DNA of 64,000 nucleotides from Gemmatimonadota bacterium (lineage in GTDB: Bacteria; Gemmatimonadota; Gemmatimonadetes; Gemmatimonadales; GWC2-71-9): positions 175,359 through 239,358 of the forward strand of contig JAOTVV010000003.1 in NCBI GenBank assembly GCA_029863245.1, written 5' to 3'. Under the pieces are notes generated by a model. The model saw nothing but the letters and a program-made list of their open reading frames with translations. It searched no databases and had not been told where the DNA came from. Below, one piece after another: positions 43,554-57,012 of this stretch (position 1 is its first letter; each line of letters begins with the position of its first letter). A program made the translations under genes and the position numbers.

Positions 43554-43622
43554 CGACGGAGATCTCCTGAAGCTGAGGGAGGTAACAGCGTAAGCTAGCG
43601 CGTCACACCTCAGCGACCGCGC

Positions 43623-43666
43623 AACCGCCCGACCGACTAACCGTTGAACCGCCTAACCGTCAAACC
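43623..43666 (+). repeat. Degenerate octamer array (AACCGNCT-like)
   Basis: aaccgccc gaccgact aaccgttg aaccgcct aaccgtca aacc; same unit as the array at 55291-55386. Confidence 0.6.
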
Positions 43667-43727
43667 ACTCGACTTGCGTGGCTCAGTCCACCGTCCCATA
43701 ATGGCTGGTAAGAGCGAACCTCGGCAC
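43662..43727 (+). repeat. 66-bp dispersed repeat, copy upstream of peptide A
   Basis: gacttgcgtggctca-N11-cataatggctg..aag.gcgaa.ctcggcac; ungapped match to 6082-6147. Confidence 0.8.
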
Positions 43728-43741
43728 CTGGGAGGCCCGTT

Positions 43742-43912
43742 ATGGATCGTGACGACAACGCACCGGACCGAGTGCGGAACGAGCAGCGGGATCGGAAACC
43801 GTGGGTCCCACCCGAACTGCGAGACCTGCCCAAACTCACGGATCTCACGTTACAAACCGGTAGTCCTATCGGCGGCACCGGCAACCCAGGCACAGGCAGC
43901 ACCGTCTTCTGA
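43742..43912 (+). CDS. Short RiPP-precursor-like peptide A (56 aa), below the supplied ORF length cutoff
   Basis: MDRDDNAPDRVRNEQRDRKPWVPPELRDLPKLTDLTLQTGSPIGGTGNPGTGSTVF*; shares the C-terminal half with the peptide at 54365-54538. Confidence 0.82.
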   Translation: MDRDDNAPDRVRNEQRDRKPWVPPELRDLPKLTDLTLQTGSPIGGTGNPGTGSTVF

Positions 43913-44031: not shown

Positions 44032-45858
44032 ATGCGCGGCACACCACGGACCACAGTTTACCCCATCATTTTCCTCATGTTGCTCGTCGCGGCTGCGGCG
44101 TGCGTGGACGGCATACCCGTGACCTCTCCGGAGGAAGTGACAAAAGAGGAAGTCACTGAACCTGCAGGCAACCCGAGTGTCGTCGCGTCGGTGACCTGCA
44201 CCGCGAACGTGACGGCGGGCGAGCTCTCGTGCGGGAAGGTCCCGGTGGTGGACATTGAGACGGGGGTGCAGCGCATCATTGTCGGCGGCCAGGGTATGTT
44301 TGTCGAGCTTTTTTCGCCTCAGCCCTTCGTGTCTTACAACCCCACTACCCAGATCTTCCAGGCTGACGTCTACCTTGAGAACTACATCACCCAGGGGCTG
44401 GGCAGCGCTGACGGGCTCACGACGACGGGGATCCGAGTCTTCACGCACAGCGGACCCACCGTGACGAGTACAACTCCACCTGGGGGAACTGCGACTGTCA
44501 CGGTGGCCAACGCCGACGGCACAGGGACCTTCACCGGCGCGAACCAACCATTCCACCTCTACGACCAGTACCTACCCGCGGCTGACCCACCTTCTATTTT
44601 TTACCCTACCGACACCCTGACCTGGCAGTGGAACGTCCCCACTAACGTCAACACGTTCGTGTTCGAGGTCTTCGTCGACGCCGATGTCGTGAACCCGAAC
44701 GGTTACGTGCTGATGTCTCCCGGGTCGCTCTTGATGTCGGTCGGGGGAGGAACCCAAACGGTGACCGGCACGCCTGCCGATGTTGTGGGGCGGGGCGTTA
44801 TAACCACTGTTACCTACTCGAGCTCCGACCCGACGATCGCAAACGTCAATTCGAGCACCGGCGAGGTCACGGCGGTGAACGCGGGGATCGTCGACATCAT
44901 CGGCACGACCGGCGGGCCGGAAGCGGATGGCAGGACGAGAGTCACCATCGACCCGCCCACCGCAGGCTTCGATATCGATCTACACTTCATCACGCCTGTC
45001 TCTGCGACCCAAGCGGCGGCGTTCACCGCCGCCGCGGCACGGTGGGGAGGGCTGATCACGGGTGACCTCGCTACTGAGCAGGTTGACATTCCCATCATCT
45101 TGTGCGGGGGGCTGGTCGACGAGCATGTGGACGATCTCGCGATCAACGTGCTGCTCGACAGTATTGACGGTCCTGGCGACTTCCTCGCCTTTGCGGGCCC
45201 CTGCTGGTTCCGACCCACTGGCGCTGGCGGGCTGCCCGCGTTTGGGTTCATGGTGTTCGACACCGCTGACGTGGCCGGCTTGGAGGCGGACGGCCGGCTT
45301 GACGACCTGGTGGCGCACGAGATGGGACATGTGCTGGGTATCGGCACCTTGTGGGACAACGGACTGCTGAACGACGAGACTGGCCCCCTGACGTCGGACG
45401 AGTGCTTCCCCGGTGGGGAAGATCCGCCGCCCCCGCTCATGACTGACCCGTTCTTTTCTGGCCCACAGGCGACTACCGCCTTCAACAACAATGGTGGCGG
45501 TGCCTACACTGGAAACAGGGTGCCGGTCGAGAACGACTTTGGCCCCGGGTCACGGTGCGTACACTGGCGTGAGTCGGTCACGCCCACCGAACTGATGACC
45601 CCCATCATTGAGGCGCCCGCGATCGCGATGCCGCTGAGTGAGATGACGGTGAAATCGCTGGCTGACTTGGGCTACATGGTGGCGACCTCGGGCTGGGACA
45701 CGTGCCTGTACCCGACGTGCGCTCCGCCGGCCGGAGTGGTTGCGCTCGATGCCGCGGTCGGCAGGCTGGAACTGGTCAATGATGTGTGGCTTGGGCCGAT
45801 CTACTCGCGGGACGAACAGGGGCAAATCATCGTGGTTGTGCCGGACAGGCGGCGCTAA
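44032..45858 (+). CDS. Secreted lipoprotein with Ig-like region and M8/leishmanolysin-like zinc metalloprotease domain
   Basis: Lipobox LLLVAAAAC; Ig-like DVVGRGVITTVTYSSSDPTIANVNSSTGEVTAVNAG; LVAHEMGHVLGIGTLWDN; VHWRESVTPTELMTPII. Confidence 0.87.
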   Translation: MRGTPRTTVYPIIFLMLLVAAAACVDGIPVTSPEEVTKEEVTEPAGNPSVVASVTCTANVTAGELSCGKVPVVDIETGVQRIIVGGQGMFVELFSPQPFVSYNPTTQIFQADVYLENYITQGLGSADGLTTTGIRVFTHSGPTVTSTTPPGGTATVTVANADGTGTFTGANQPFHLYDQYLPAADPPSIFYPTDTLTWQWNVPTNVNTFVFEVFVDADVVNPNGYVLMSPGSLLMSVGGGTQTVTGTPADVVGRGVITTVTYSSSDPTIANVNSSTGEVTAVNAGIVDIIGTTGGPEADGRTRVTIDPPTAGFDIDLHFITPVSATQAAAFTAAAARWGGLITGDLATEQVDIPIILCGGLVDEHVDDLAINVLLDSIDGPGDFLAFAGPCWFRPTGAGGLPAFGFMVFDTADVAGLEADGRLDDLVAHEMGHVLGIGTLWDNGLLNDETGPLTSDECFPGGEDPPPPLMTDPFFSGPQATTAFNNNGGGAYTGNRVPVENDFGPGSRCVHWRESVTPTELMTPIIEAPAIAMPLSEMTVKSLADLGYMVATSGWDTCLYPTCAPPAGVVALDAAVGRLELVNDVWLGPIYSRDEQGQIIVVVPDRRR

Positions 45859-46442: not shown

Positions 46443-46678
46443 GCAGCGGCTGCCCTCGTGGCCTACGAGGTAGGACTCGCGCTCAACACAATCCGAAGCA
46501 AAAGGATCGTAATGTGTTGTCGTTGCAGCACTTGCGCGACGTTGTCCCGCGCCGTATTGTGCCCCCTGAAAAGGTCACAGCTCACGTCGGTGCCCCTCCG
46601 GCCCCGCCGCCTGACCGACGCCGCAGTCTGACGCCCGCCTGACGACGTGACCGCCGAGCCTTCGGCGGAGAGCCCTCT
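46443..46678 (+). repeat. 237-bp dispersed repeat, copy A (inverted relative to copy B)
   Basis: gcagcggctgccctcgtgg...cgacgccgcagtctgacgcccgcctgacgacg..accgccgag.cttcggcggagagcc; ends in hairpin CCGCCG-N6-CGGCGG. Confidence 0.9.
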
Positions 46679-46823
46679 AAGAAGTCGCGTATCGTGGTGC
46701 CCGTTCGACGCGTTCATCCGCTATGACGCGGGTCGGCGCGCAGAGCGGTCACTGTAGACTGAGGAGGCCCGCAAGGTGGCGTTTGGGGTTGCCGTATCGA
46801 GTAGCGGTGCGCTCCGGAGGCTA

Positions 46824-47291: not shown

Positions 47292-47390
47292 GGCAATGGT
47301 TGGGGCAGACGATAATCCAAAGAGCACGACTTGAGGTCAATGCGCATAAAGGGGATGGAGCTTGTGACTCTCGTGGCTCAGGAGGGAATC

Positions 47391-47652
47391 ATGTATGCGA
47401 GACAATTGCCACTGCGGCCCTGTAGCCTCGCGGGAGTGCTCACGTTGCTGGTGATCCTGCTACCGACCGATCTCTGGTCGCAACAGGACCCGTATGTCGC
47501 ACGCTTCGTGAGAGAAGGTATCTCCAGCGCGACCTGGCCCGACGTACGGGCTCGAGGTAAGGGTCCACGAGCTGACGGTCATCGAGAAGGACTTCATGGA
47601 CGTCGCACTCGACGTGGTGCTGCCAGCGCGGGCAGTCGTGATCAGCAGGTAG
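47391..47652 (+). pseudogene. Deletion remnant: 5' end of a subtilase-type secreted gene joined to the 3' end of a cohesin-protein gene
   Basis: 5' frame MYARQLPLRPCSLAGVLTLLVILLPTDLWSQQ resembles the 52916 protein start (MFAREPDVRRYGLAGILILLLISLPSDLWSQQ); 3' frame YGLEVRVHELTVIEKDFMDVALDVVLPARAVVISR* resembles the cohesin protein end (YSPSLKARVHELTVIENNFMDVTPSVVVPPHPVVVGR*). Confidence 0.85.
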
Positions 47653-48257: not shown

Positions 48258-48812
48258 TCATCGCCCCACCACGACTGGGTGGGGCGGGACGACCACGCTG
48301 GGCGTGACGTCCATGAAGTTATTCTCAATCACGGTCAGCTCGTGGACTCGCGCTTTCAGGCTCGGGCTGTACCCGGTCTCGATGACCTCCATGTGCACTG
48401 CGAAGAGCACGTCACCCCTCAACCCATCAGCGGCCGCGCCGGCAACCTTGATCAATCCCGGGTCGGCAGCGAGGTTGATGGCGCGGAGCACGCCATCATC
48501 AAGTGTCGCCGCCTCGATCGGCCTAAGTTTCTCGGGATCATAGAGCACATCGACCACGAACCCCGTTGGTGTCAGTTCGAGGTCTATGGTGCGCACCTTA
48601 CCGGTCACCGTGACCCGGGAGCCTGGAGTTGCCGTCTCCCGGTCCAGCGTGAGATAGACGTTCACGCCGGATGTGAGAACCGCCTCCTCTCCGTGTCCCG
48701 CCGCTCCCACGGGCTCGTCCGCGCAGGCGCTGAACCCGGCGGCGAGTGCCAGGCCCACCGTCACCGCGGCAGCCAGCAGCGTCTTCCTTCCTGGCTCTCT
48801 GTAGCTAGACAT
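48258..48812 (-). CDS. Secreted cohesin-domain protein
   Basis: Lipobox-like AAGFSACAD; cohesin-like VNVYLTLDRETATPGSRVTVTGKV...VDVLYDPEKLRPIEAATLDDG...GLIKVAGAAADGLRGDVLFAVHMEV. Confidence 0.78.
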   Translation of the reverse strand: MSSYREPGRKTLLAAAVTVGLALAAGFSACADEPVGAAGHGEEAVLTSGVNVYLTLDRETATPGSRVTVTGKVRTIDLELTPTGFVVDVLYDPEKLRPIEAATLDDGVLRAINLAADPGLIKVAGAAADGLRGDVLFAVHMEVIETGYSPSLKARVHELTVIENNFMDVTPSVVVPPHPVVVGR

Positions 48813-48866: not shown

Positions 48867-51800
48867 TTACGGAACCTGGCATTCCTCAAGCCCGTGCATT
48901 GCGATACGATGGTACGGGGGCAACCCGAGGCTGACCAGCCAACGCAGGATATACACCGCGTCTGTGCCCGTCATTGCGGCATCCCGATCGACATCACACA
49001 TGGCAACATCACAGGTCGGGCAGATAGGCAAGCTGACGAGATCTCTGAGACACTGCACTGCATCAGCAGCGCCGACCGCTCCATCATGTGTGACGTCACC
49101 AAAGGCGTATTCACTCACGCCGACGTTCACATTTGACCACTCCACGAGGGATAGCAGATCCTCCCCCAGCTCCCCACTCAGCTCGGTGACGTCTTTCGCT
49201 ATTGAAACGCAGGCGTCGGGCTGCAGAGCTGGATCGGATTGCAGTTGCAGGGTCAGCAGCGTAACCCTTGGCACGCCCACCGCGTCGGTGCGTGCTCCCG
49301 TACAGGGCAAGGTCCCCTGAGTGCCAGCGTCGGCGTCGTTGCAGAGGAAGGTCCCTCCGAAGTCGCCTTCCTCCACAGCGACGTACGTCATGTCAGCCGG
49401 GCTCCAGGATATCTCCTCTACAAAGGCGGCTACCGGCAGATTGCTGTCATCCTTGCTGTACAGGATCTGCGGCAGCTTGAATGGCTCCCCGTGCATCGCA
49501 CGTGGATCCCCGACGCCGGGATAGTCCGCAGTGCTCATGTCCTCTGGCGCGAACCGCGCGACGTAAAGGGCCTGACCGGCTGGATGCGGCAGAGGCCCGT
49601 CGTTAACGGGGTAGGTATAGAACTCGCCGAACCCGTCCGACGCGCCCGACAAGAACATCAGAGCACCTTCGGTCAAAGCGAGGCCGAATAGGTTATAGAA
49701 TCCAGGCGCAAGTGCCAGCTGGGTCGCGGTCGAGGTGAGATCGGGATCGATACTCCACACCCTGCCGGTGTCGTCGGTGAAGTAGACGATTCCCGACCGA
49801 CCCACTGCCACCGCCTGAACATCATACACACTGGACGCGAGCGTGGTGCTGCTCCCGTCATCCAGAGAAACCTTGGTCAATCCGTAGTTAGAGAGGTTGT
49901 TCGCTACGTACACCGAGTTGTCTTGTGGTCTGTAGGCCACTCCTCCGACGCAGGATGGCAGGCTGGTAGAGATCGGATCTTCCGCGCTTCCATCCAGCGG
50001 GATTCTGTATACCTGCCCTGAGTTCAAACATCTCGACGACCCGAACAAGTCGTTTTGGGGACCCCACGTAAGCCAGAAGACCCCCCCGTCGGGCAGCACC
50101 TTGAAATCGGACACAGTCCCATCCGGCGTGACTCGTCTCACCGTCCAAGCGAAATCGCGGATGCCAACGTACCAATTCCCATCTTCACCGAGCGCGACAC
50201 CACCCGGGGATCCTATTCCTGTGGCGATGGGGGCGCCCACAGTGCCGTCCGGCGATATCGGGATCAAGCTCCCTCCGTTGTCCCGCGTCGCGACCATCAC
50301 GCTTGGGGGTCCATTCCGTGTGTCACCTGTGGCCATACCCCAGGCGTAATCGTGGCCGCTGGAAATGATCGCCATACCTTCGGAGTACACGTAGAACCCC
50401 AGCTCCACTATCTGATTCTGCAGCCAGCCGTCGGCTGCCTGGAATTGGATGCTTCCGAAGTTCCACTCCTCAGGAACGCCGGTCGGATTCAAGGTCACCT
50501 CGACCGAAGTTTCCTGAAGGTCATTGGTCAGTCTCGGCGAATCCAGCTTCCCACGAGCTGCGGCCTTCACCCATGCTAGGAGGGGCTCGGCTAGCCGCTC
50601 GTCCGACAGCTCGTAGTCACCGGTGCCGAGCAGACCCCTGACGAACGCGGAACTAAGGGGACGCGCGACAGCCGGGTCGACGCCGCTGACTTCGGATTGC
50701 TCCACAACTCCGGTCTCTTGTCCAACAACTCCGGTCTCTTCCCTAACCTCAGGGATACTGAAATCCTCGAGCGTAATCAGCTCACCCGTCTGACTCGCCG
50801 TCCCTGAGGTGGGGTCAATAGTGATCCAGCTCTCGGATGGCGACCCAGTCCACGCAACCGTCCCGAGGCCAGTGAGGTCAAAGACTGTGAGTGGGGTGCT
50901 GAGGCTGCTTCCGTTCTGCTCACCTCGAGTCACGAACCCCCACCAGGAGAATCCTAAGATCGCCGCCGCCGGCCGGGCTTTCAGCAGGTAGCCTCCCCCA
51001 AAAGCATCGGCCCAGGCACCCACTTCAACGACGTAGTCGCCCGTCTCCGGTAGATAGACCCTGTACACCAGCGCCTGGAAGCCCAGCCCGGCGTATGGTG
51101 CCATATCGTTCCAGTCCAACAGCGTTTCCCCGTCGGGCTTGTAGACCCGAACCACTGGATCGATCAACGCTGGCGATGCCGAATAGTCGGTCAGCACTGC
51201 CACGTCGATTTCTTGCCCTGCTGTTCCACTTAGCAAGTACCGCACGCGCTCACCAACAGGGAGCATGCCGGCCGTCGTAATGGCCGCATCGAGAGCGATT
51301 CGCGGAGCGACTGCGAGCCGTACACGCATGGTCACGGGCGAGTTGGCTGCGTTCCCACTAATTGTCACAAAACCGGTGTAGAAGCCGGTGCCGAGTCCAG
51401 AGGGATTCGCAACGACATCGAACTGATCAGGTGTGACATCGCTCGCGCTGCCCGACGCTGGATTCAGTGTGATCCACGTGGCGTCGTCCGTCGCCGTCCA
51501 GTCGATCGTCCCCGCGGCGCCGACGTTCCGGATCTCCACCGGCGCTGTGATCGACGCTCCTCCTGGCTCTGCCGCCAGCGTGACTTCCATCGGATCAACG
51601 GAGAGTGCGAAACTGCCTGAGGCAACCGCGGCGACCGCAGCCCCCGCATCTACGACACCATACCCGCTCTCCCAATCGAATCCCGACGCTTCGATGTCCT
51701 GTGCCGTACTCCGCAGTATCTGCCGTACCTGATCCACGGTGAGATCGGGCCGTGCTGCGCGCACCAGGGCCGCCACGCCGGCGACGTGTGGCGACGCCAT

Positions 51801-52916
51801 CGAGGTCCCGTTCTTTGTACCATATCCCCCTCCACCAAGCGTGCTGTACACACCAACTCCGGGGGCCGCGAGTTCGATCTCAGGTCCGGTGTTCGAGAAC
51901 GAGGCCACATTGTCAGACTGGTAGATGGCGGCGACGGCGATCGCATACGGCTGCGCTGCTGGGAACCCGACCTGCCCGCTGAGGAGTTGCCCTTCGTTAC
52001 CAGCGGACGCGACCGGAAACACGCCTGCTGAGTACGCGGCGAACAGCGCATCACCCCGGGCGAAACTGGGGTACAGGCCGCCGAAACTCATGTTAATAAC
52101 GTCCAGGTCGTTCGTAGTCGCCCATTCAATTCCCAAGATGCTGTGGGACCGAAGCACGCTGCAGGTGGTGAGTCCGGCGTTCTCAGGATCGAACACACGA
52201 AGCGCATAGAGGTCCACCTCGGGTGCCACGCCAACCACGCCGATCGTGTTGTCCAGCGCGGCAACGGTTCCAGCGACGTGTGTACCGTGGGTGGAGGAAC
52301 AAATAGCCGAGTTATCGTCCCAATCACTCCGTGTCGTTCCCCCGGTGACGAGGTTTATTCCTCCGATCGGGTTGAGATCGGGATGATCCTCATCGATACC
52401 CGTGTCGAGGATGCCTACCGACACGCCCGATCCCTTGGTAAACGACCATGCGGACGATGCACCGACCCGCGTAATGCCCCACGGCGTCGTTTGCGCCGTG
52501 GGCTCGTCCAGGTGATCTGGCTCGACGTAATCAATGTTGGGATTTGCCAGTAGCTCTTCCAACCGGTCAGGATCGATGATGGCTGCGACAGCCGGGATGA
52601 TCTGGTACTGGATCGTCACCTCCACACCCAGCGGTGCCAGCGACACTGCCAACTGTGCAACTGCATTCGGAGCCAGCGCTGAGGTCCCGTCCGAACGCAT
52701 CCCTTGCCCCGCGTCCACTGGCTTGAAGCCGATGATCACGCGTCCGTTGAGCTCTCGAATCTGGGTCTTGATCGTTGCGATCTCTTGTGGGGTTAGGCCG
52801 GCTTGTCGCCCTGGCCGTTCCTGTTGCGACCACAGATCGCTCGGCAGCGAGATAAGCAGCAGTATGAGAATTCCCGCGAGACCGTAACGCCGCACGTCCG
52901 GCTCCCTCGCAAACAT
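48867..52916 (-). CDS. Large secreted S8 subtilase with C-terminal dockerin
   Basis: Catalytic motifs GILDTGIDEDHPDL, STHGTHVAGTVA, NGTSMASPHVAGVAAL; terminal duplicated GDVTHDGAVGAADAVQCLRDLVSLP ... CDVDRDAAMTGTDAVYILRWLVSLG dockerin type I repeats. Confidence 0.93.
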   Translation of the reverse strand: MFAREPDVRRYGLAGILILLLISLPSDLWSQQERPGRQAGLTPQEIATIKTQIRELNGRVIIGFKPVDAGQGMRSDGTSALAPNAVAQLAVSLAPLGVEVTIQYQIIPAVAAIIDPDRLEELLANPNIDYVEPDHLDEPTAQTTPWGITRVGASSAWSFTKGSGVSVGILDTGIDEDHPDLNPIGGINLVTGGTTRSDWDDNSAICSSTHGTHVAGTVAALDNTIGVVGVAPEVDLYALRVFDPENAGLTTCSVLRSHSILGIEWATTNDLDVINMSFGGLYPSFARGDALFAAYSAGVFPVASAGNEGQLLSGQVGFPAAQPYAIAVAAIYQSDNVASFSNTGPEIELAAPGVGVYSTLGGGGYGTKNGTSMASPHVAGVAALVRAARPDLTVDQVRQILRSTAQDIEASGFDWESGYGVVDAGAAVAAVASGSFALSVDPMEVTLAAEPGGASITAPVEIRNVGAAGTIDWTATDDATWITLNPASGSASDVTPDQFDVVANPSGLGTGFYTGFVTISGNAANSPVTMRVRLAVAPRIALDAAITTAGMLPVGERVRYLLSGTAGQEIDVAVLTDYSASPALIDPVVRVYKPDGETLLDWNDMAPYAGLGFQALVYRVYLPETGDYVVEVGAWADAFGGGYLLKARPAAAILGFSWWGFVTRGEQNGSSLSTPLTVFDLTGLGTVAWTGSPSESWITIDPTSGTASQTGELITLEDFSIPEVREETGVVGQETGVVEQSEVSGVDPAVARPLSSAFVRGLLGTGDYELSDERLAEPLLAWVKAAARGKLDSPRLTNDLQETSVEVTLNPTGVPEEWNFGSIQFQAADGWLQNQIVELGFYVYSEGMAIISSGHDYAWGMATGDTRNGPPSVMVATRDNGGSLIPISPDGTVGAPIATGIGSPGGVALGEDGNWYVGIRDFAWTVRRVTPDGTVSDFKVLPDGGVFWLTWGPQNDLFGSSRCLNSGQVYRIPLDGSAEDPISTSLPSCVGGVAYRPQDNSVYVANNLSNYGLTKVSLDDGSSTTLASSVYDVQAVAVGRSGIVYFTDDTGRVWSIDPDLTSTATQLALAPGFYNLFGLALTEGALMFLSGASDGFGEFYTYPVNDGPLPHPAGQALYVARFAPEDMSTADYPGVGDPRAMHGEPFKLPQILYSKDDSNLPVAAFVEEISWSPADMTYVAVEEGDFGGTFLCNDADAGTQGTLPCTGARTDAVGVPRVTLLTLQLQSDPALQPDACVSIAKDVTELSGELGEDLLSLVEWSNVNVGVSEYAFGDVTHDGAVGAADAVQCLRDLVSLPICPTCDVAMCDVDRDAAMTGTDAVYILRWLVSLGLPPYHRIAMHGLEECQVP

Positions 52917-53021: not shown

Positions 53022-54302
53022 TCACGGCGTGACCACGCAGACATTCACAGGCTCGGTTATGATGATCGCGCGCTCCAATAGATTGATAGACTCGAAGGTC
53101 ACTGGGTCTATTGCTGTCAGTTCGGTTAGGGTTGGAGTGAAGTCAGAACATCCTTCGCTCAGGCCCTGGACGCTGAACGTCAGGGCATCGAGCACGTCGC
53201 CCGTTAATCCGGCCGCTGAGATTGCCGAGAACTTGAGCGTACCGGCGGGAGTCTCGTTCGAGAAGAGCAGGTCCCAGATGGTCCCTGCCGCATCATCGAG
53301 ATAGTCGAGGAGCGACCCAGTCCAGGTCACGTCACCAACCATCGAAGTCAGCGGTTCCGAGATCTGCGTGACATCCAGCTGCAGCGCAATATCCGACGTG
53401 CCGCCCACCGATGGACTCACGGGGGCTGCCAGGGTGCGGACGTAGACGACCGGCTTCACCGTCACCGTCACACAACCGTCAGCTTCCGGCCCGGAGCTGC
53501 TCGCGCAGACGGTGCTCGTCCCCTCTGCAACACCGCTGACCTCTCCCGTCCCGGGATCCACGTCGGCAACGCCCGGCACCAAGCTCGACCACGTCACCGT
53601 CCGACCGGTCACCGGCCGACCGATGCGATCGCGGACCACCGCGTCGAGCGTCTCTGTCAGCCCGATTCCCACCACCGGCTGCTCCGGGCTGACGTCCACC
53701 CAGCCGTCGTCATACTGGACGTTCGCCCAGACGTACACGGCGAAGTTGAAGGTCAAGACGCTCGACGGCACGTTCCACCGCCACATCATGGGAGACGAGA
53801 TATCGTCGGTGTCTAGCATCTCGTCATACTGAAAGTACGGCTGTTCGGTCAAGATAAACGTCGCTGTACCAGACGCGTTGGCTACGGTCACGATGCCGTC
53901 CCCACCAGTCACGCTCGGGCCCTCATGGAAGAACACGCGAACGCCCTCGGGATCGAGGGTCGTGCCATCGGTAGTTCCGAGGGCCTGCCCAATCAGGTTC
54001 TGCACCGTGACGTCTGCCTGAAACACGGCGGAGCCGTCGTAGCTCACGTTGTCGGAGGCCAGCCGCACATGGGGATTTCCAACGATGACCGAGAGCGAGA
54101 GCCCTGGCACCGGGTCGCTCTGAAGGCCCTGGCACAAGACTGTGCCGGCCGCCACCTCCGCGCGACACGCAATCACCTGTGGCAGCGGAGCTGTGTCTTC
54201 AGTCGGGGCCGTCGGGATGGTGGGGTCGTCGCACGCCCCTGCGAGGAGGATAGCGACCAAAGGAGTGATCGTTCGAGTCAGGAACTGCAGTGTACGTGGC
54301 AT
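53022..54302 (-). CDS. Secreted lipoprotein with Ig-like (BIg2) domain and C-terminal cohesin-like domain
   Basis: Lipobox AILLAGAC; TWSSLVPGVADVDPGTGEVSGVAEGTSTV; SVGGTSDIALQLDVT...GTLKFSAISAAGLTGDVLDALTFSVQG. Confidence 0.82.
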   Translation of the reverse strand: MPRTLQFLTRTITPLVAILLAGACDDPTIPTAPTEDTAPLPQVIACRAEVAAGTVLCQGLQSDPVPGLSLSVIVGNPHVRLASDNVSYDGSAVFQADVTVQNLIGQALGTTDGTTLDPEGVRVFFHEGPSVTGGDGIVTVANASGTATFILTEQPYFQYDEMLDTDDISSPMMWRWNVPSSVLTFNFAVYVWANVQYDDGWVDVSPEQPVVGIGLTETLDAVVRDRIGRPVTGRTVTWSSLVPGVADVDPGTGEVSGVAEGTSTVCASSSGPEADGCVTVTVKPVVYVRTLAAPVSPSVGGTSDIALQLDVTQISEPLTSMVGDVTWTGSLLDYLDDAAGTIWDLLFSNETPAGTLKFSAISAAGLTGDVLDALTFSVQGLSEGCSDFTPTLTELTAIDPVTFESINLLERAIIITEPVNVCVVTP

Positions 54303-54364: not shown

Positions 54365-54538
54365 CTAGAACACGGTGCTGCCGCCCGTATCGCCTCCCCC
54401 ACCTATTGGGCTACCGGTCTGCAAGGTGAGGTCGGTCAAACGGGGCAGATCGGTAATCTGCGGTTTGGTCCAGCGCTTCTTCTCAGTTGGCGGTAAGTCA
54501 GCGTTCGGTCCGGGATTGGGTGCGGTGCGACCGTCCAT
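54365..54538 (-). CDS. Short RiPP-precursor-like peptide B (57 aa)
   Basis: MDGRTAPNPGPNADLPPTEKKRWTKPQITDLPRLTDLTLQTGSPIGGGGDTGGSTVF*; paralog of peptide A; upstream GAGGAGG. Confidence 0.85.
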   Translation of the reverse strand: MDGRTAPNPGPNADLPPTEKKRWTKPQITDLPRLTDLTLQTGSPIGGGGDTGGSTVF

Positions 54539-54631
54539 GGTGGCCTCCTCGATCAAGCCATGACCGCTGCGCGCACCGACTCGCGTCACGCTCGCGGACG
54601 CGTCGGTCGAGCGACAGGATCACCAAGTTCC

Positions 54632-54868
54632 AGAGGGGCTCTCCGCCGAAGACTCGGCGGTCTCGTCGTCAGGCGGGCGTCAGACTGCGGCGTCGGTCGG
54701 GCGGCGGGGCCAGAGGGGCAACGACGTGAGCTGTCACCTTCCAGGCGTTGACTATGTAACGCGGGACACCGTCGCGCAAGTACTGCAGCGACAACACATT
54801 ACGAGGGTTTTGGTCCAGATTGTGTTGCGCACGACTTCTAGCTCGTGGCCCACGAGGGCAGCCGCTGC
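54632..54868 (-). repeat. 237-bp dispersed repeat, copy B
   Basis: Reverse-complement match to 46443-46678 without indels through the translated 65-codon frame. Confidence 0.9.
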
Positions 54869-55290: not shown

Positions 55291-55386
55291 AACCGCCTAA
55301 CCGCCTAACCGCCTAACCGCCTAACCGTGTAACCGCCTAACCGCCTAACCGTGTAACCGCCTAACCGCCTAACCGCCTAACCGCCC
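55291..55386 (+). repeat. Octanucleotide tandem array (12 x AACCGCCT, two variant AACCGTGT units)
   Basis: Direct reading of twelve consecutive 8-bp units; overlaps the 3' end of the downstream kinase gene. Confidence 0.97.
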
Positions 55387-57012
55387 ATCTCCCCCCGACC
55401 CCATCATCGAGGCGATCGAGCGCCCGGTACGCAGGAGCCAGCGCCGCACCGGAGTCCCCCGCTCGGTACCGGCGGGCTGGGGCTCCACAGGCGCCGCGCT
55501 CGGCCCGGCCGGAAGGCGCAGCGCTCCGCGCATCGGCGGGCCGGTTTCCACTCGGCGTTCGGGTACCGTCCCCGGCAGCATCACGTGGAAGATCGTCCCG
55601 CCACCCGACCGGCTCTCGACATCCACGGTGCCTCCGTGCGCCTCGACGAGTTGGCGCACGATGGCGAGCCCCAGACCCACACCGCCGTCGGACCGCTTGC
55701 GGCCCGCCTGGTAGTACTTGCTGAACACGAATGACACTTCCTCGTCCGGGATGCCCACGCCGGAATCGATCACGGCGAAGTGCAACGCCGATGGGCGGGT
55801 CCGATCGCCCCATACTCGAATGGACACCTTGCCGCCCCGGGGCGTGAACTTGAAGGCGTTGGACAAGAGGTTGCCGACGATCTCGTTGTGCAGGGCTTCT
55901 GGGTCCACCTCCACAAAGGCAGGTGCGCTCGGGTCCACGCTCACCGTGAAGTCGATGCCGTGGTGCCGAGCCTGCGGCTCGAACGCGCTCCGCACCCAGC
56001 CGAAGGTCGGGACGACCGGGACCTGCTCGGTCTGGATTGGATACGCCTGTGCCTCGATCCGTCCCAGGTTGAGCATGCGGTTCACGCGCTCGGTCAAGAG
56101 CCGCACGTGCTCGTGGATCGTGCGGAAGTGGCCGCGCTGCTGCTCGTCGAGCTTGGGGCCGGCCGCTTCCTCGATCAGTTCGGCACACCCGTTGATGATG
56201 TTGAGCGGGGCCTTGATGTCGTGGCTCACGACGTTCAAGACTTCACCCCGGATCCGCTCCAGCTCCGCCAGCTGGTTGGTCATCGAGCGGAACGAGCGGC
56301 TCAGGTCACCCAGCTCGTCTTCGCGCTCATAGGGCAGGTCTGACGGCGCCACGAACACCCCGTGCGCCACCGAGGCCATGCTGGTTCGGAGTCGCCGCAC
56401 CGGACGGGTGAGCGTCAACGTGGTCCACAGCGCGACGGCAGCGCCGAACGCGAGCGCGAGCAGCCCAGCGAGAAGGGCCGTCCGGATCGCGCCGGCACTG
56501 ATCTCTTGCGCTGCGGTCGCCGCGCGCGCGCTGGAACGATTGATCGCATCGCCGATCGGAGCGACGGTCGACCGCGCCTCCACGAGGACGGGCTGCACGG
56601 TGGTGCGCAAGTAGTCAGTGGCATCCTGCGCGCGGCGGGCCTCGACCAGTGCCTCCAACGCGAGCGTCGCTGCCGCCAGCGAGTCCAGCCATACCGTGGG
56701 CGGGGTGTCGACGCTGCCGATGCCTGCCTGCGCGAGTCGATCGGCGCCCGCGAGGGCCTGGTTCAACGCCTTGTGCATTCCGGCGCGGAACGCCGGGTCG
56801 GGGGCAATCACGTAGCTCCGCGCCTGGCGGTCGAACTCGATGAGGCCGGTGCGCAACTCACCCAGGGCGTCCAACGTGGTTGCCTGGTTGGTCTGCAGCG
56901 TGACGGCGATCTCGCGCACCTGCCTGAGACGCCCGATCCCATAGGCGAGGGGCATGCCCAGAAGCAGCGCGATCGCGGCGAAGGCGAGCAGGAGTCGGGC
57001 GCGAATGGTCAC
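55369..57012 (-). CDS. Sensor histidine kinase (membrane, HAMP, HisKA, HATPase)
   Basis: VVSHDIKAPLNIINGCAELI H-box; VIDSGVGIP; GVGLGLAIVRQLVEAHGG. Confidence 0.93.
   Translation of the reverse strand: MTIRARLLLAFAAIALLLGMPLAYGIGRLRQVREIAVTLQTNQATTLDALGELRTGLIEFDRQARSYVIAPDPAFRAGMHKALNQALAGADRLAQAGIGSVDTPPTVWLDSLAAATLALEALVEARRAQDATDYLRTTVQPVLVEARSTVAPIGDAINRSSARAATAAQEISAGAIRTALLAGLLALAFGAAVALWTTLTLTRPVRRLRTSMASVAHGVFVAPSDLPYEREDELGDLSRSFRSMTNQLAELERIRGEVLNVVSHDIKAPLNIINGCAELIEEAAGPKLDEQQRGHFRTIHEHVRLLTERVNRMLNLGRIEAQAYPIQTEQVPVVPTFGWVRSAFEPQARHHGIDFTVSVDPSAPAFVEVDPEALHNEIVGNLLSNAFKFTPRGGKVSIRVWGDRTRPSALHFAVIDSGVGIPDEEVSFVFSKYYQAGRKRSDGGVGLGLAIVRQLVEAHGGTVDVESRSGGGTIFHVMLPGTVPERRVETGPPMRGALRLPAGPSAAPVEPQPAGTERGTPVRRWLLRTGRSIASMMGSGGDGRLGG

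What the first reader, a model, noticed from the sequence alone, without database searches (positions are those of the whole stretch)
54365..54538. Second peptide (B) in the same position at a divergent paralogous locus
Peptide B sits on the opposite strand, about 63 bp upstream of its own secreted lipoprotein; peptide A sits about 119 bp upstream of the homologous lipoprotein at 44032. The two lipoproteins align at their N-terminal region (CTANVTAGELSCGKV / CRAEVAAGTVLCQGL; FQADVYLENYITQGLGSADGLTTTGIRVFTHSGPTVT / FQADVTVQNLIGQALGTTDGTTLDPEGVRVFFHEGPSVT) but carry different C-terminal effector domains. Conserved peptide plus conserved N-terminal domain with swapped C-termini looks like a modular cassette.
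Basis: partly seen in the sequence, partly recalled or inferred. Interest (0 to 1): 0.82.

Follow-up and report, generated by a model that had tools for sequence, protein, structure and literature searches.

The report
Peptide-lipoprotein cassette of a RiPP pathway
The two small peptides are almost certainly precursors of an uncharacterised enzymatically modified peptide in Gemmatimonadota soil and hot-spring bacteria, and each travels with a surface lipoprotein that has a constant front half and a swappable working end; what the finished peptide does is still unknown.

Summary
Confirmed and extended. Peptide B (54368-54538, minus strand, 57 aa) and peptide A (43742-43909, plus strand, 56 aa) are homologous genes under purifying selection, each directly upstream of a putative lipoprotein (LP). 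The two LPs share 39% identity over 313 residues, then diverge completely. A third copy elsewhere in the genome explains them: peptide C, then a radical SAM enzyme, then a third LP. Another contig holds a lasso-type maturation kit: PqqD (B1), B2 leader peptidase, HprK-like kinase, nucleotidyltransferase, second radical SAM. The peptides carry a strict lasso-type leader, W(-17)xxP(-14)x[LVI]xxLPxLTxLT(-2)L(-1), and a conserved small-residue core. In 290 genomes of the order, peptide, radical SAM and LP domain co-occur (Fisher p 6e-16, 4e-11, 1.5e-12), usually in one cluster; the arrangement recurs in other families of the class. No lasso cyclase is in the clusters; one near-complete genome with the full kit has none at all. 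So this is a RiPP system with lasso-style leader handling, a radical SAM in place of the cyclase, and a dedicated polymorphic lipoprotein family (metalloprotease, nuclease, propeller, adhesin-like ends). Product chemistry and function are unknown; my best guess is that the LP front domain holds the mature peptide at the cell surface.

The parts
54365..54538 (-). Peptide B, 57 aa RiPP-type precursor. Predicted leader to ...LTDLTL (residue 39); predicted core QTGSPIGGGGDTGGSTVF (residues 40-57)
   Evidence: ORF; homologs; third-position divergence; leader register W(-17), P(-14), T(-2) with the spacing of PMC10368454
53022..54302 (-). LP-B, 426 aa putative lipoprotein: signal peptide plus Cys (LLAGAC), ~165-aa shared N-domain (about 53703-54185), Big_2, then a unique C-terminal domain (53025-53465) of unknown family
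   Evidence: C-domain without Pfam match and without a confident model (pLDDT 32)
43742..43912 (+). Peptide A, 56 aa RiPP-type precursor, predicted core QTGSPIGGTGNPGTGSTVF
44032..45858 (+). LP-A, 608 aa putative lipoprotein: signal peptide, shared N-domain (44179-44721), Big_2, M8/leishmanolysin-like metalloprotease with HEMGH motif
   Evidence: PF01457 E=5e-4, just under cut-off; an orthologous C-terminus lies inside the RiPP cluster of G035 (L064, over cut-off)
48867..52916 (-). S8 subtilase with BACON domains and a dockerin-like C-terminus, directly downstream of LP-B on the same strand; possible partner of the B cassette (inferred)
   Evidence: dockerin just under cut-off

Best explanation
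Peptides A and B are precursor peptides of a ribosomally made, post-translationally modified peptide (RiPP). The leader is bound by a PqqD-type recognition protein through W-x2-P-x-[LVI]; a radical SAM enzyme modifies the conserved small-residue core; a lasso-type B2 cysteine peptidase cuts after T(-2)-L(-1); an HprK-like kinase and a nucleotidyltransferase may decorate the conserved Ser/Thr near the C-terminus. Maturation enzymes are encoded once or twice per genome, while precursors are scattered, each with its own lipoprotein. SHOWN by sequence: precursor homology, strict leader, presence and linkage of the enzymes, absence of a lasso cyclase from the clusters, and co-conservation with the LP family. 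INFERRED: that these enzymes act on these peptides, and in that order. SPECULATIVE (about 0.35): the LP N-domain, a beta-sandwich, binds or carries the mature peptide at the cell surface, and the swappable C-terminus (protease, nuclease, propeller, adhesin) is the effector thereby assembled, anchored or switched. The overall confidence refers to the RiPP-precursor-plus-dedicated-LP statement, not to the last step.
For: Peptide C lies 14 bp upstream of a radical SAM gene (PF04055 E=2.5e-17) followed by a third LP. G000 contig C34 carries PqqD (PF05402 E=2.4e-20; best NCBIfam models are the lasso PqqD chaperones, under their cut-offs), lasso B2 (NF033537, over cut-off), HprK-like kinase, NTP_transf_5 and a second radical SAM, 59% identical to the first. 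Whole clusters in relatives: G053 pep-rSAM-LP-LP-PD40-PqqD-kinase, with the NTase on the other strand; G035 pep-rSAM-PqqD-LP(metalloprotease)-PD40-B2-kinase, NTase on the other strand, split over two contigs; G017 pep-LP-rSAM-PD40-PqqD-B2-kinase; G145 pep-LP-rSAM-PqqD; G207 pep-LP-rSAM-kinase-PqqD-B2. In 290 genomes of the order: peptide in 12, rSAM in 15, LP in 31; overlaps 11/12, 11/12, 13/15; Fisher p 6e-16, 4e-11, 1.5e-12. The arrangement recurs in family f6 (pep-rSAM-LP-PD40 in G411, pep-rSAM-PD40-LP in G404). In 20 peptides W-17, P-14, L-9, L-6, L-3, T-2 and L-1 are invariant, the spacing of lasso leaders (YxxPxL at -17 to -12; Thr at -2, PMC10368454). A peptide of the same kit (G207) matches the NCBIfam lasso model NF033528 weakly (E=6e-4).
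Against: A and B have no maturase beside them, so processing must be in trans. The LP family is wider than the peptide (31 versus 12 genomes; 12 LPs to 4 peptides in G149), so not every LP needs a neighbouring peptide. B2 was not found in the G053 cluster. The Fisher tests ignore relatedness, profiles were seeded from positive genomes, and limits of the first look may hide peptides. No ABC exporter was seen in the syntenic blocks, so how a product would leave the cell is unexplained. A and B match no curated RiPP precursor model. No expression or product data.
Confidence: 0.72

Rival explanations
1. The product is a secreted antimicrobial or signalling peptide, and the lipoproteins are its immunity or receptor proteins or secreted accessory enzymes.
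For: RiPP clusters often carry lipoprotein immunity genes (general knowledge); LPs are encoded next to the precursors.
Against: The core is nearly constant across genera and families, unusual for weapons; the LPs are large with protease, nuclease, propeller or adhesin ends rather than one small immunity protein; no exporter seen in the blocks.
Confidence: 0.2
2. The pathway makes an intracellular or periplasmic cofactor-like small molecule from the peptide (PQQ or mycofactocin style), used by LP-associated enzymes.
For: PqqD plus radical SAM plus peptidase is the PQQ/mycofactocin logic; the strongly conserved core suggests a fixed product; one kit serves many LPs.
Against: No Tyr in the core, so not the known cofactor chemistry; lasso B2 and HprK-like kinase are not part of those pathways; many LP C-termini are not redox enzymes.
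Confidence: 0.12
3. It is a degenerate or unusual lasso-peptide system whose cyclase is encoded elsewhere and acts in trans.
For: Leader, B1, B2, kinase and NTase are all lasso-type; D at residue 11 of the core of peptide B, or D/E at 7-9 in a few cores.
Against: No cyclase in any cluster; G017 (99% complete, 5 contigs, full kit) has no full-length Asn_synthase protein; most cores have no D/E at 7-9, and A and C have no acidic core residue at all.
Confidence: 0.08
4. Peptide and LP are hitch-hiking neighbours without functional link, spread together by duplication within the genome.
For: A and B lie in one 12-kb region with an inverted 270-bp repeat.
Against: Linkage persists across families of the class with different gene orders and genome-level co-occurrence is strong.
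Confidence: 0.05

Closest known systems
Lasso peptide biosynthesis with discrete B1/B2, kinase and nucleotidyltransferase (paeninodin, pseudomycoidin, Bradymonas bsf; PMC9266682, PMC10368454)
   Same: Leader motif and spacing, discrete PqqD-type B1, B2 peptidase, HprK-like kinase with His, GxxxxGK[ST] and DD residues, PF14907 nucleotidyltransferase
   Different: No lasso cyclase, no conserved macrolactam acceptor, radical SAM in the cluster, precursors scattered beside large lipoproteins
Lasso-type discrete RREs co-occurring with radical SAM enzymes, noted but not characterised in RRE-Finder (about 300; PMC7470986)
   Same: Discrete lasso-like RRE next to a radical SAM; the present clusters are plausibly in or near that set
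   Different: The passages read name no precursor, product or lipoprotein partner for that set, and the word Gemmatimonad does not occur in the paper
SPASM-type radical SAM RiPP maturases (PqqE, SkfB; nearest PDB sequence relatives)
   Same: CxxxCxxC cluster site and Cys-rich C-terminal part (C226, C245, C246, C300, C303 invariant)
   Different: Far below every NCBIfam cut-off (best TIGR04251 at 76 of 400 bits); substrates without Cys or Tyr
Polymorphic secreted proteins with a constant N-terminal part and exchangeable C-terminal effector ends (general class, from own knowledge)
   Same: Constant N-domain, swapped C-termini, several copies per genome
   Different: Here a RiPP precursor gene accompanies the cassette and no link to a known secretion apparatus was found

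Membership tests
RiPP biosynthetic system (general) | Short precursor gene with conserved leader next to a modifying enzyme and an RRE | tested here: met
RiPP biosynthetic system (general) | Modified peptide product detected | not testable with these tools
   needs expression and mass spectrometry
Lasso peptide | Leader YxxPxL at -17 to -12 and Thr at -2 | tested here: met
   W replaces Y; W-17, P-14, T-2 invariant in 20 peptides; W/Y/LxxP is however shared by several RiPP classes (PMC12710340)
Lasso peptide | PqqD-type B1 and transglutaminase-like B2 peptidase | tested here: met
   (B2 not found in the G053 cluster)
Lasso peptide | Asn-synthetase-like cyclase | tested here: not met
   none in any cluster; G017 has no full-length PF00733 protein
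Lasso peptide | Asp/Glu at core position 7-9 | tested here: not met
   4 of 20 cores only; none in A, B or C
Sactipeptide / ranthipeptide | Cys in the core | tested here: not met
   no Cys in the 20 aligned cores
PQQ / mycofactocin | Tyr-containing core | tested here: not met
   no Tyr in the cores
SPASM radical SAM | CxxxCxxC plus complete SPASM Cys motif | tested here: inconclusive
   CxxxCxxC invariant; five C-terminal Cys invariant, pattern not the textbook SPASM motif
Epimerase-type radical SAM RiPP | D-amino acids in product | not testable with these tools
   needs product chemistry
Bacterial lipoprotein (LP-A, LP-B) | Signal peptide with lipobox Cys | tested here: inconclusive
   hydrophobic start and Cys after small residues seen by eye (AAAC, AGAC); no predictor available

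The most novel reading that the evidence does not exclude
A RiPP product acts as a dedicated, genetically encoded ligand or docking tag for a family of surface proteins: the mature peptide is held by the lipoproteins' constant N-domain, so that one biosynthetic kit equips many exchangeable extracellular effectors. That would be a use of RiPPs distinct from antibiotic, signal or redox cofactor.
Probability: 0.25. Interest if true: 0.87.

Novelty: new variant of a known kind. Interest (0 to 1): 0.66.

Why it matters
It defines a RiPP gene kit, apparently not yet characterised, that spans several families of a poorly cultured phylum: lasso-style leader handling with a radical SAM where the cyclase should be, and with its own polymorphic lipoprotein family. 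RRE-Finder counted about 300 lasso-like RREs beside radical SAM enzymes without explaining them; these clusters supply precursors, a leader rule, a predicted cleavage site and a testable partner protein. It makes a simple question testable: can a modified peptide serve as a built-in part of surface proteins?

Tried and rejected
Pfam and NCBIfam on peptides A and B: no family (only a chance-level PqqA hit, E 0.17). Lasso cyclase: searched in eight genomes; full-length PF00733 proteins exist in several of them away from the clusters, none full-length in G017, so lasso membership rejected. PDB sequence search with the LP N-domain: nothing. Foldseek of its model (domain pLDDT about 90): best hits are viral VP37 and CBM2/CBM3 carbohydrate-binding modules with query-normalised TM scores of only 0.2-0.4; kept as a lead (beta-sandwich, binding-type), not as an assignment. 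C-terminal domain of LP-B: AlphaFold without alignment failed (pLDDT 32); a phmmer hit to titin is chance (domain i-E 0.25); a suspected cohesin fold is not supported for LP-B. The G145 peptide's N-terminus is not defined; only its part from W(-17) on was used. Literature search found no paper on Gemmatimonadota RiPPs of this kind; most subscription papers are outside the library, so absence of prior work is not proven.

Full report
Observation. Peptide B is the minus-strand ORF 54538-54365 (57 aa), 62 bp upstream of LP-B (54302-53022); peptide A is 43742-43912 (56 aa), 119 bp upstream of LP-A (44032-45858). The peptides share an unbroken block LTDLTLQTGSPIGG and the end GSTVF. Across these 19 residues A and B differ in 12 codons, with 12 of 13 nucleotide changes at third positions, which shows selection on the protein. 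The lipoproteins are 39% identical over 313 residues, from signal peptide through a ~165-aa domain and a Big_2 domain, and unrelated beyond that. LP-A ends in an M8-like metalloprotease (PF01457 E=5e-4, just under cut-off); LP-B ends in a domain I could not assign.

The third copy gives the key. The window lies in a 3.68-Mb assembly (94% complete); relatives found by name are Gemmatimonadetes MAGs, including HRbin33. The assembly holds exactly three peptides and three LP N-domains. The third pair, on contig C14, is peptide C, then 14 bp downstream a 335-aa radical SAM protein (PF04055 E=2.5e-17), then a third LP. A second radical SAM, 59% identical, lies on contig C34 beside a PqqD-type RRE (E=2.4e-20), a lasso B2 leader peptidase (NF033537, over cut-off), an HprK-like kinase, a PF14907 nucleotidyltransferase and a PD40-propeller protein.

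Relatives have the kit in one piece. G053: peptide, rSAM, LP, LP, PD40, PqqD, kinase, with the nucleotidyltransferase on the opposite strand. G035 (two contigs): peptide, rSAM, PqqD, LP with metalloprotease, PD40, B2, kinase, nucleotidyltransferase on the opposite strand. G017: peptide, LP, rSAM, PD40, PqqD, B2, kinase. G039: peptide, rSAM, LP, PD40, PqqD, LP, over two contigs. In a second family, G145 has peptide, LP, rSAM, PqqD, and G207 has peptide, LP, rSAM, kinase, PqqD, B2; G149 has four peptide loci and twelve LPs. In other families of the class, G411 has peptides, rSAM, LP, PD40; G404 has peptide, rSAM, PD40, LP; and G318 has PqqD, kinase, nucleotidyltransferase, two LPs, PD40 and rSAM.

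Statistics. Among 290 genomes of the order, 12 carry the peptide (E below 1e-4), 15 the rSAM (E below 1e-40), 31 the LP domain (E below 1e-6). Eleven of 12 peptide genomes have the rSAM (p=6e-16), 11 of 12 have the LP (p=4e-11), 13 of 15 rSAM genomes have the LP (p=1.5e-12). These tests ignore phylogeny and the profiles were seeded from positive genomes, so the p values overstate the strength; the physical linkage in differing gene orders is the stronger argument.

Leader and core. Aligned on the tryptophan, 20 peptides are invariant at W-17, P-14, L-9, L-6, L-3, T-2 and L-1. This is the spacing of lasso leaders, YxxPxL at -17 to -12 with Thr at -2 (PMC10368454), and predicts the core QTGSPIGGGGDTGGSTVF for B. 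The core is roughly (Q/V/A)TG..I.G.G..GSTVF: no Cys, no Tyr, usually no acidic residue at 7-9. A precursor of the same kit in G207 matches a lasso leader model weakly, as does a true lasso precursor found beside a cyclase in G213.

Why not a lasso peptide. No cluster holds an Asn-synthetase-like cyclase, and G017, 99% complete in five contigs with the full kit, has no full-length PF00733 protein. Acceptor residues are not conserved. The system therefore works like lasso biosynthesis in leader handling but fails two defining features; I do not file it as a lasso peptide. W/Y/LxxP leaders and PqqD-like RREs are shared among RiPP classes (PMC12710340). RRE-Finder reported about 300 lasso-like RREs beside radical SAM enzymes and left them open (PMC7470986).

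The lipoproteins. The N-domain (16-row alignment, two invariant Cys) matches no Pfam model and no PDB sequence. AlphaFold gives a beta-sandwich, pLDDT about 90 over the domain; Foldseek matches are weak and mostly carbohydrate-binding modules. C-termini seen: metalloprotease, beta-propeller-like repeats, RCC1, lamin-tail domain, lamin-tail plus DNA/RNA endonuclease (PF01223 E=4e-48), and arrays of Big/invasin/cadherin domains.

Mechanism. Supported: A and B are RiPP precursors, most likely matured in trans by enzymes on C14 and C34. Inferred from the roles of homologs: PqqD binds the leader, the radical SAM modifies the core, B2 cuts after TL, the kinase (PadeK/ThcoK/BsfK type, PMC9266682 and PMC10368454) may phosphorylate a core Ser/Thr. 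Speculative: the LP N-domain binds the mature peptide at the surface. For it: dedicated pairing, a near-invariant core, one kit for several LPs, varied effectors. Against: LPs without peptides are common, and no exporter is seen. In the B locus the next gene downstream is a subtilase with a dockerin-like end, possibly part of the same surface assembly.

Noticed in passing
window 46443-46713 and 54598-54868: A ~270-bp inverted repeat (85% complementary) lies just upstream of peptide B and about 0.6 kb beyond LP-A; the full length occurs only at these two places in the genome, with ~30-75-bp pieces in about a dozen others.
   Followed up: partly
window 48258-48812 and 48867-52916, minus strand: A subtilase with dockerin-like C-terminus (Dockerin_1 21.2 of 22.9 bits) is followed by a short secreted protein with a weak cohesin match (E=0.012), suggesting a small cohesin-dockerin pair downstream of LP-B.
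   Followed up: partly
window 47331-47500 versus 52819-52916: The start of the subtilase (signal peptide ...DLWSQQ) is repeated in inverse orientation at ~47.4 kb as a short broken reading frame, a likely remnant of a duplicate.
   Followed up: no
window 55291-55393 and 43607-43677: 8-bp tandem repeats (AACCGCCT) flank the region on both sides.
   Followed up: no
L185 (G298:C10:36000-48500): Five LP genes in tandem with no peptide motif found beside them; several genomes of this family hold at least nine LPs, so the LP family has expanded independently of the precursor.
   Followed up: partly
L038 and L106 (G085, G229), L162 (G207): A divergent precursor type with a related leader but a different core ending in STGFFP or CSTGFCPRK, in the same gene kit.
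   Followed up: no
L107 (G213): A genuine lasso cluster with cyclase and a small precursor, a natural comparison for the cyclase-free kit.
   Followed up: no
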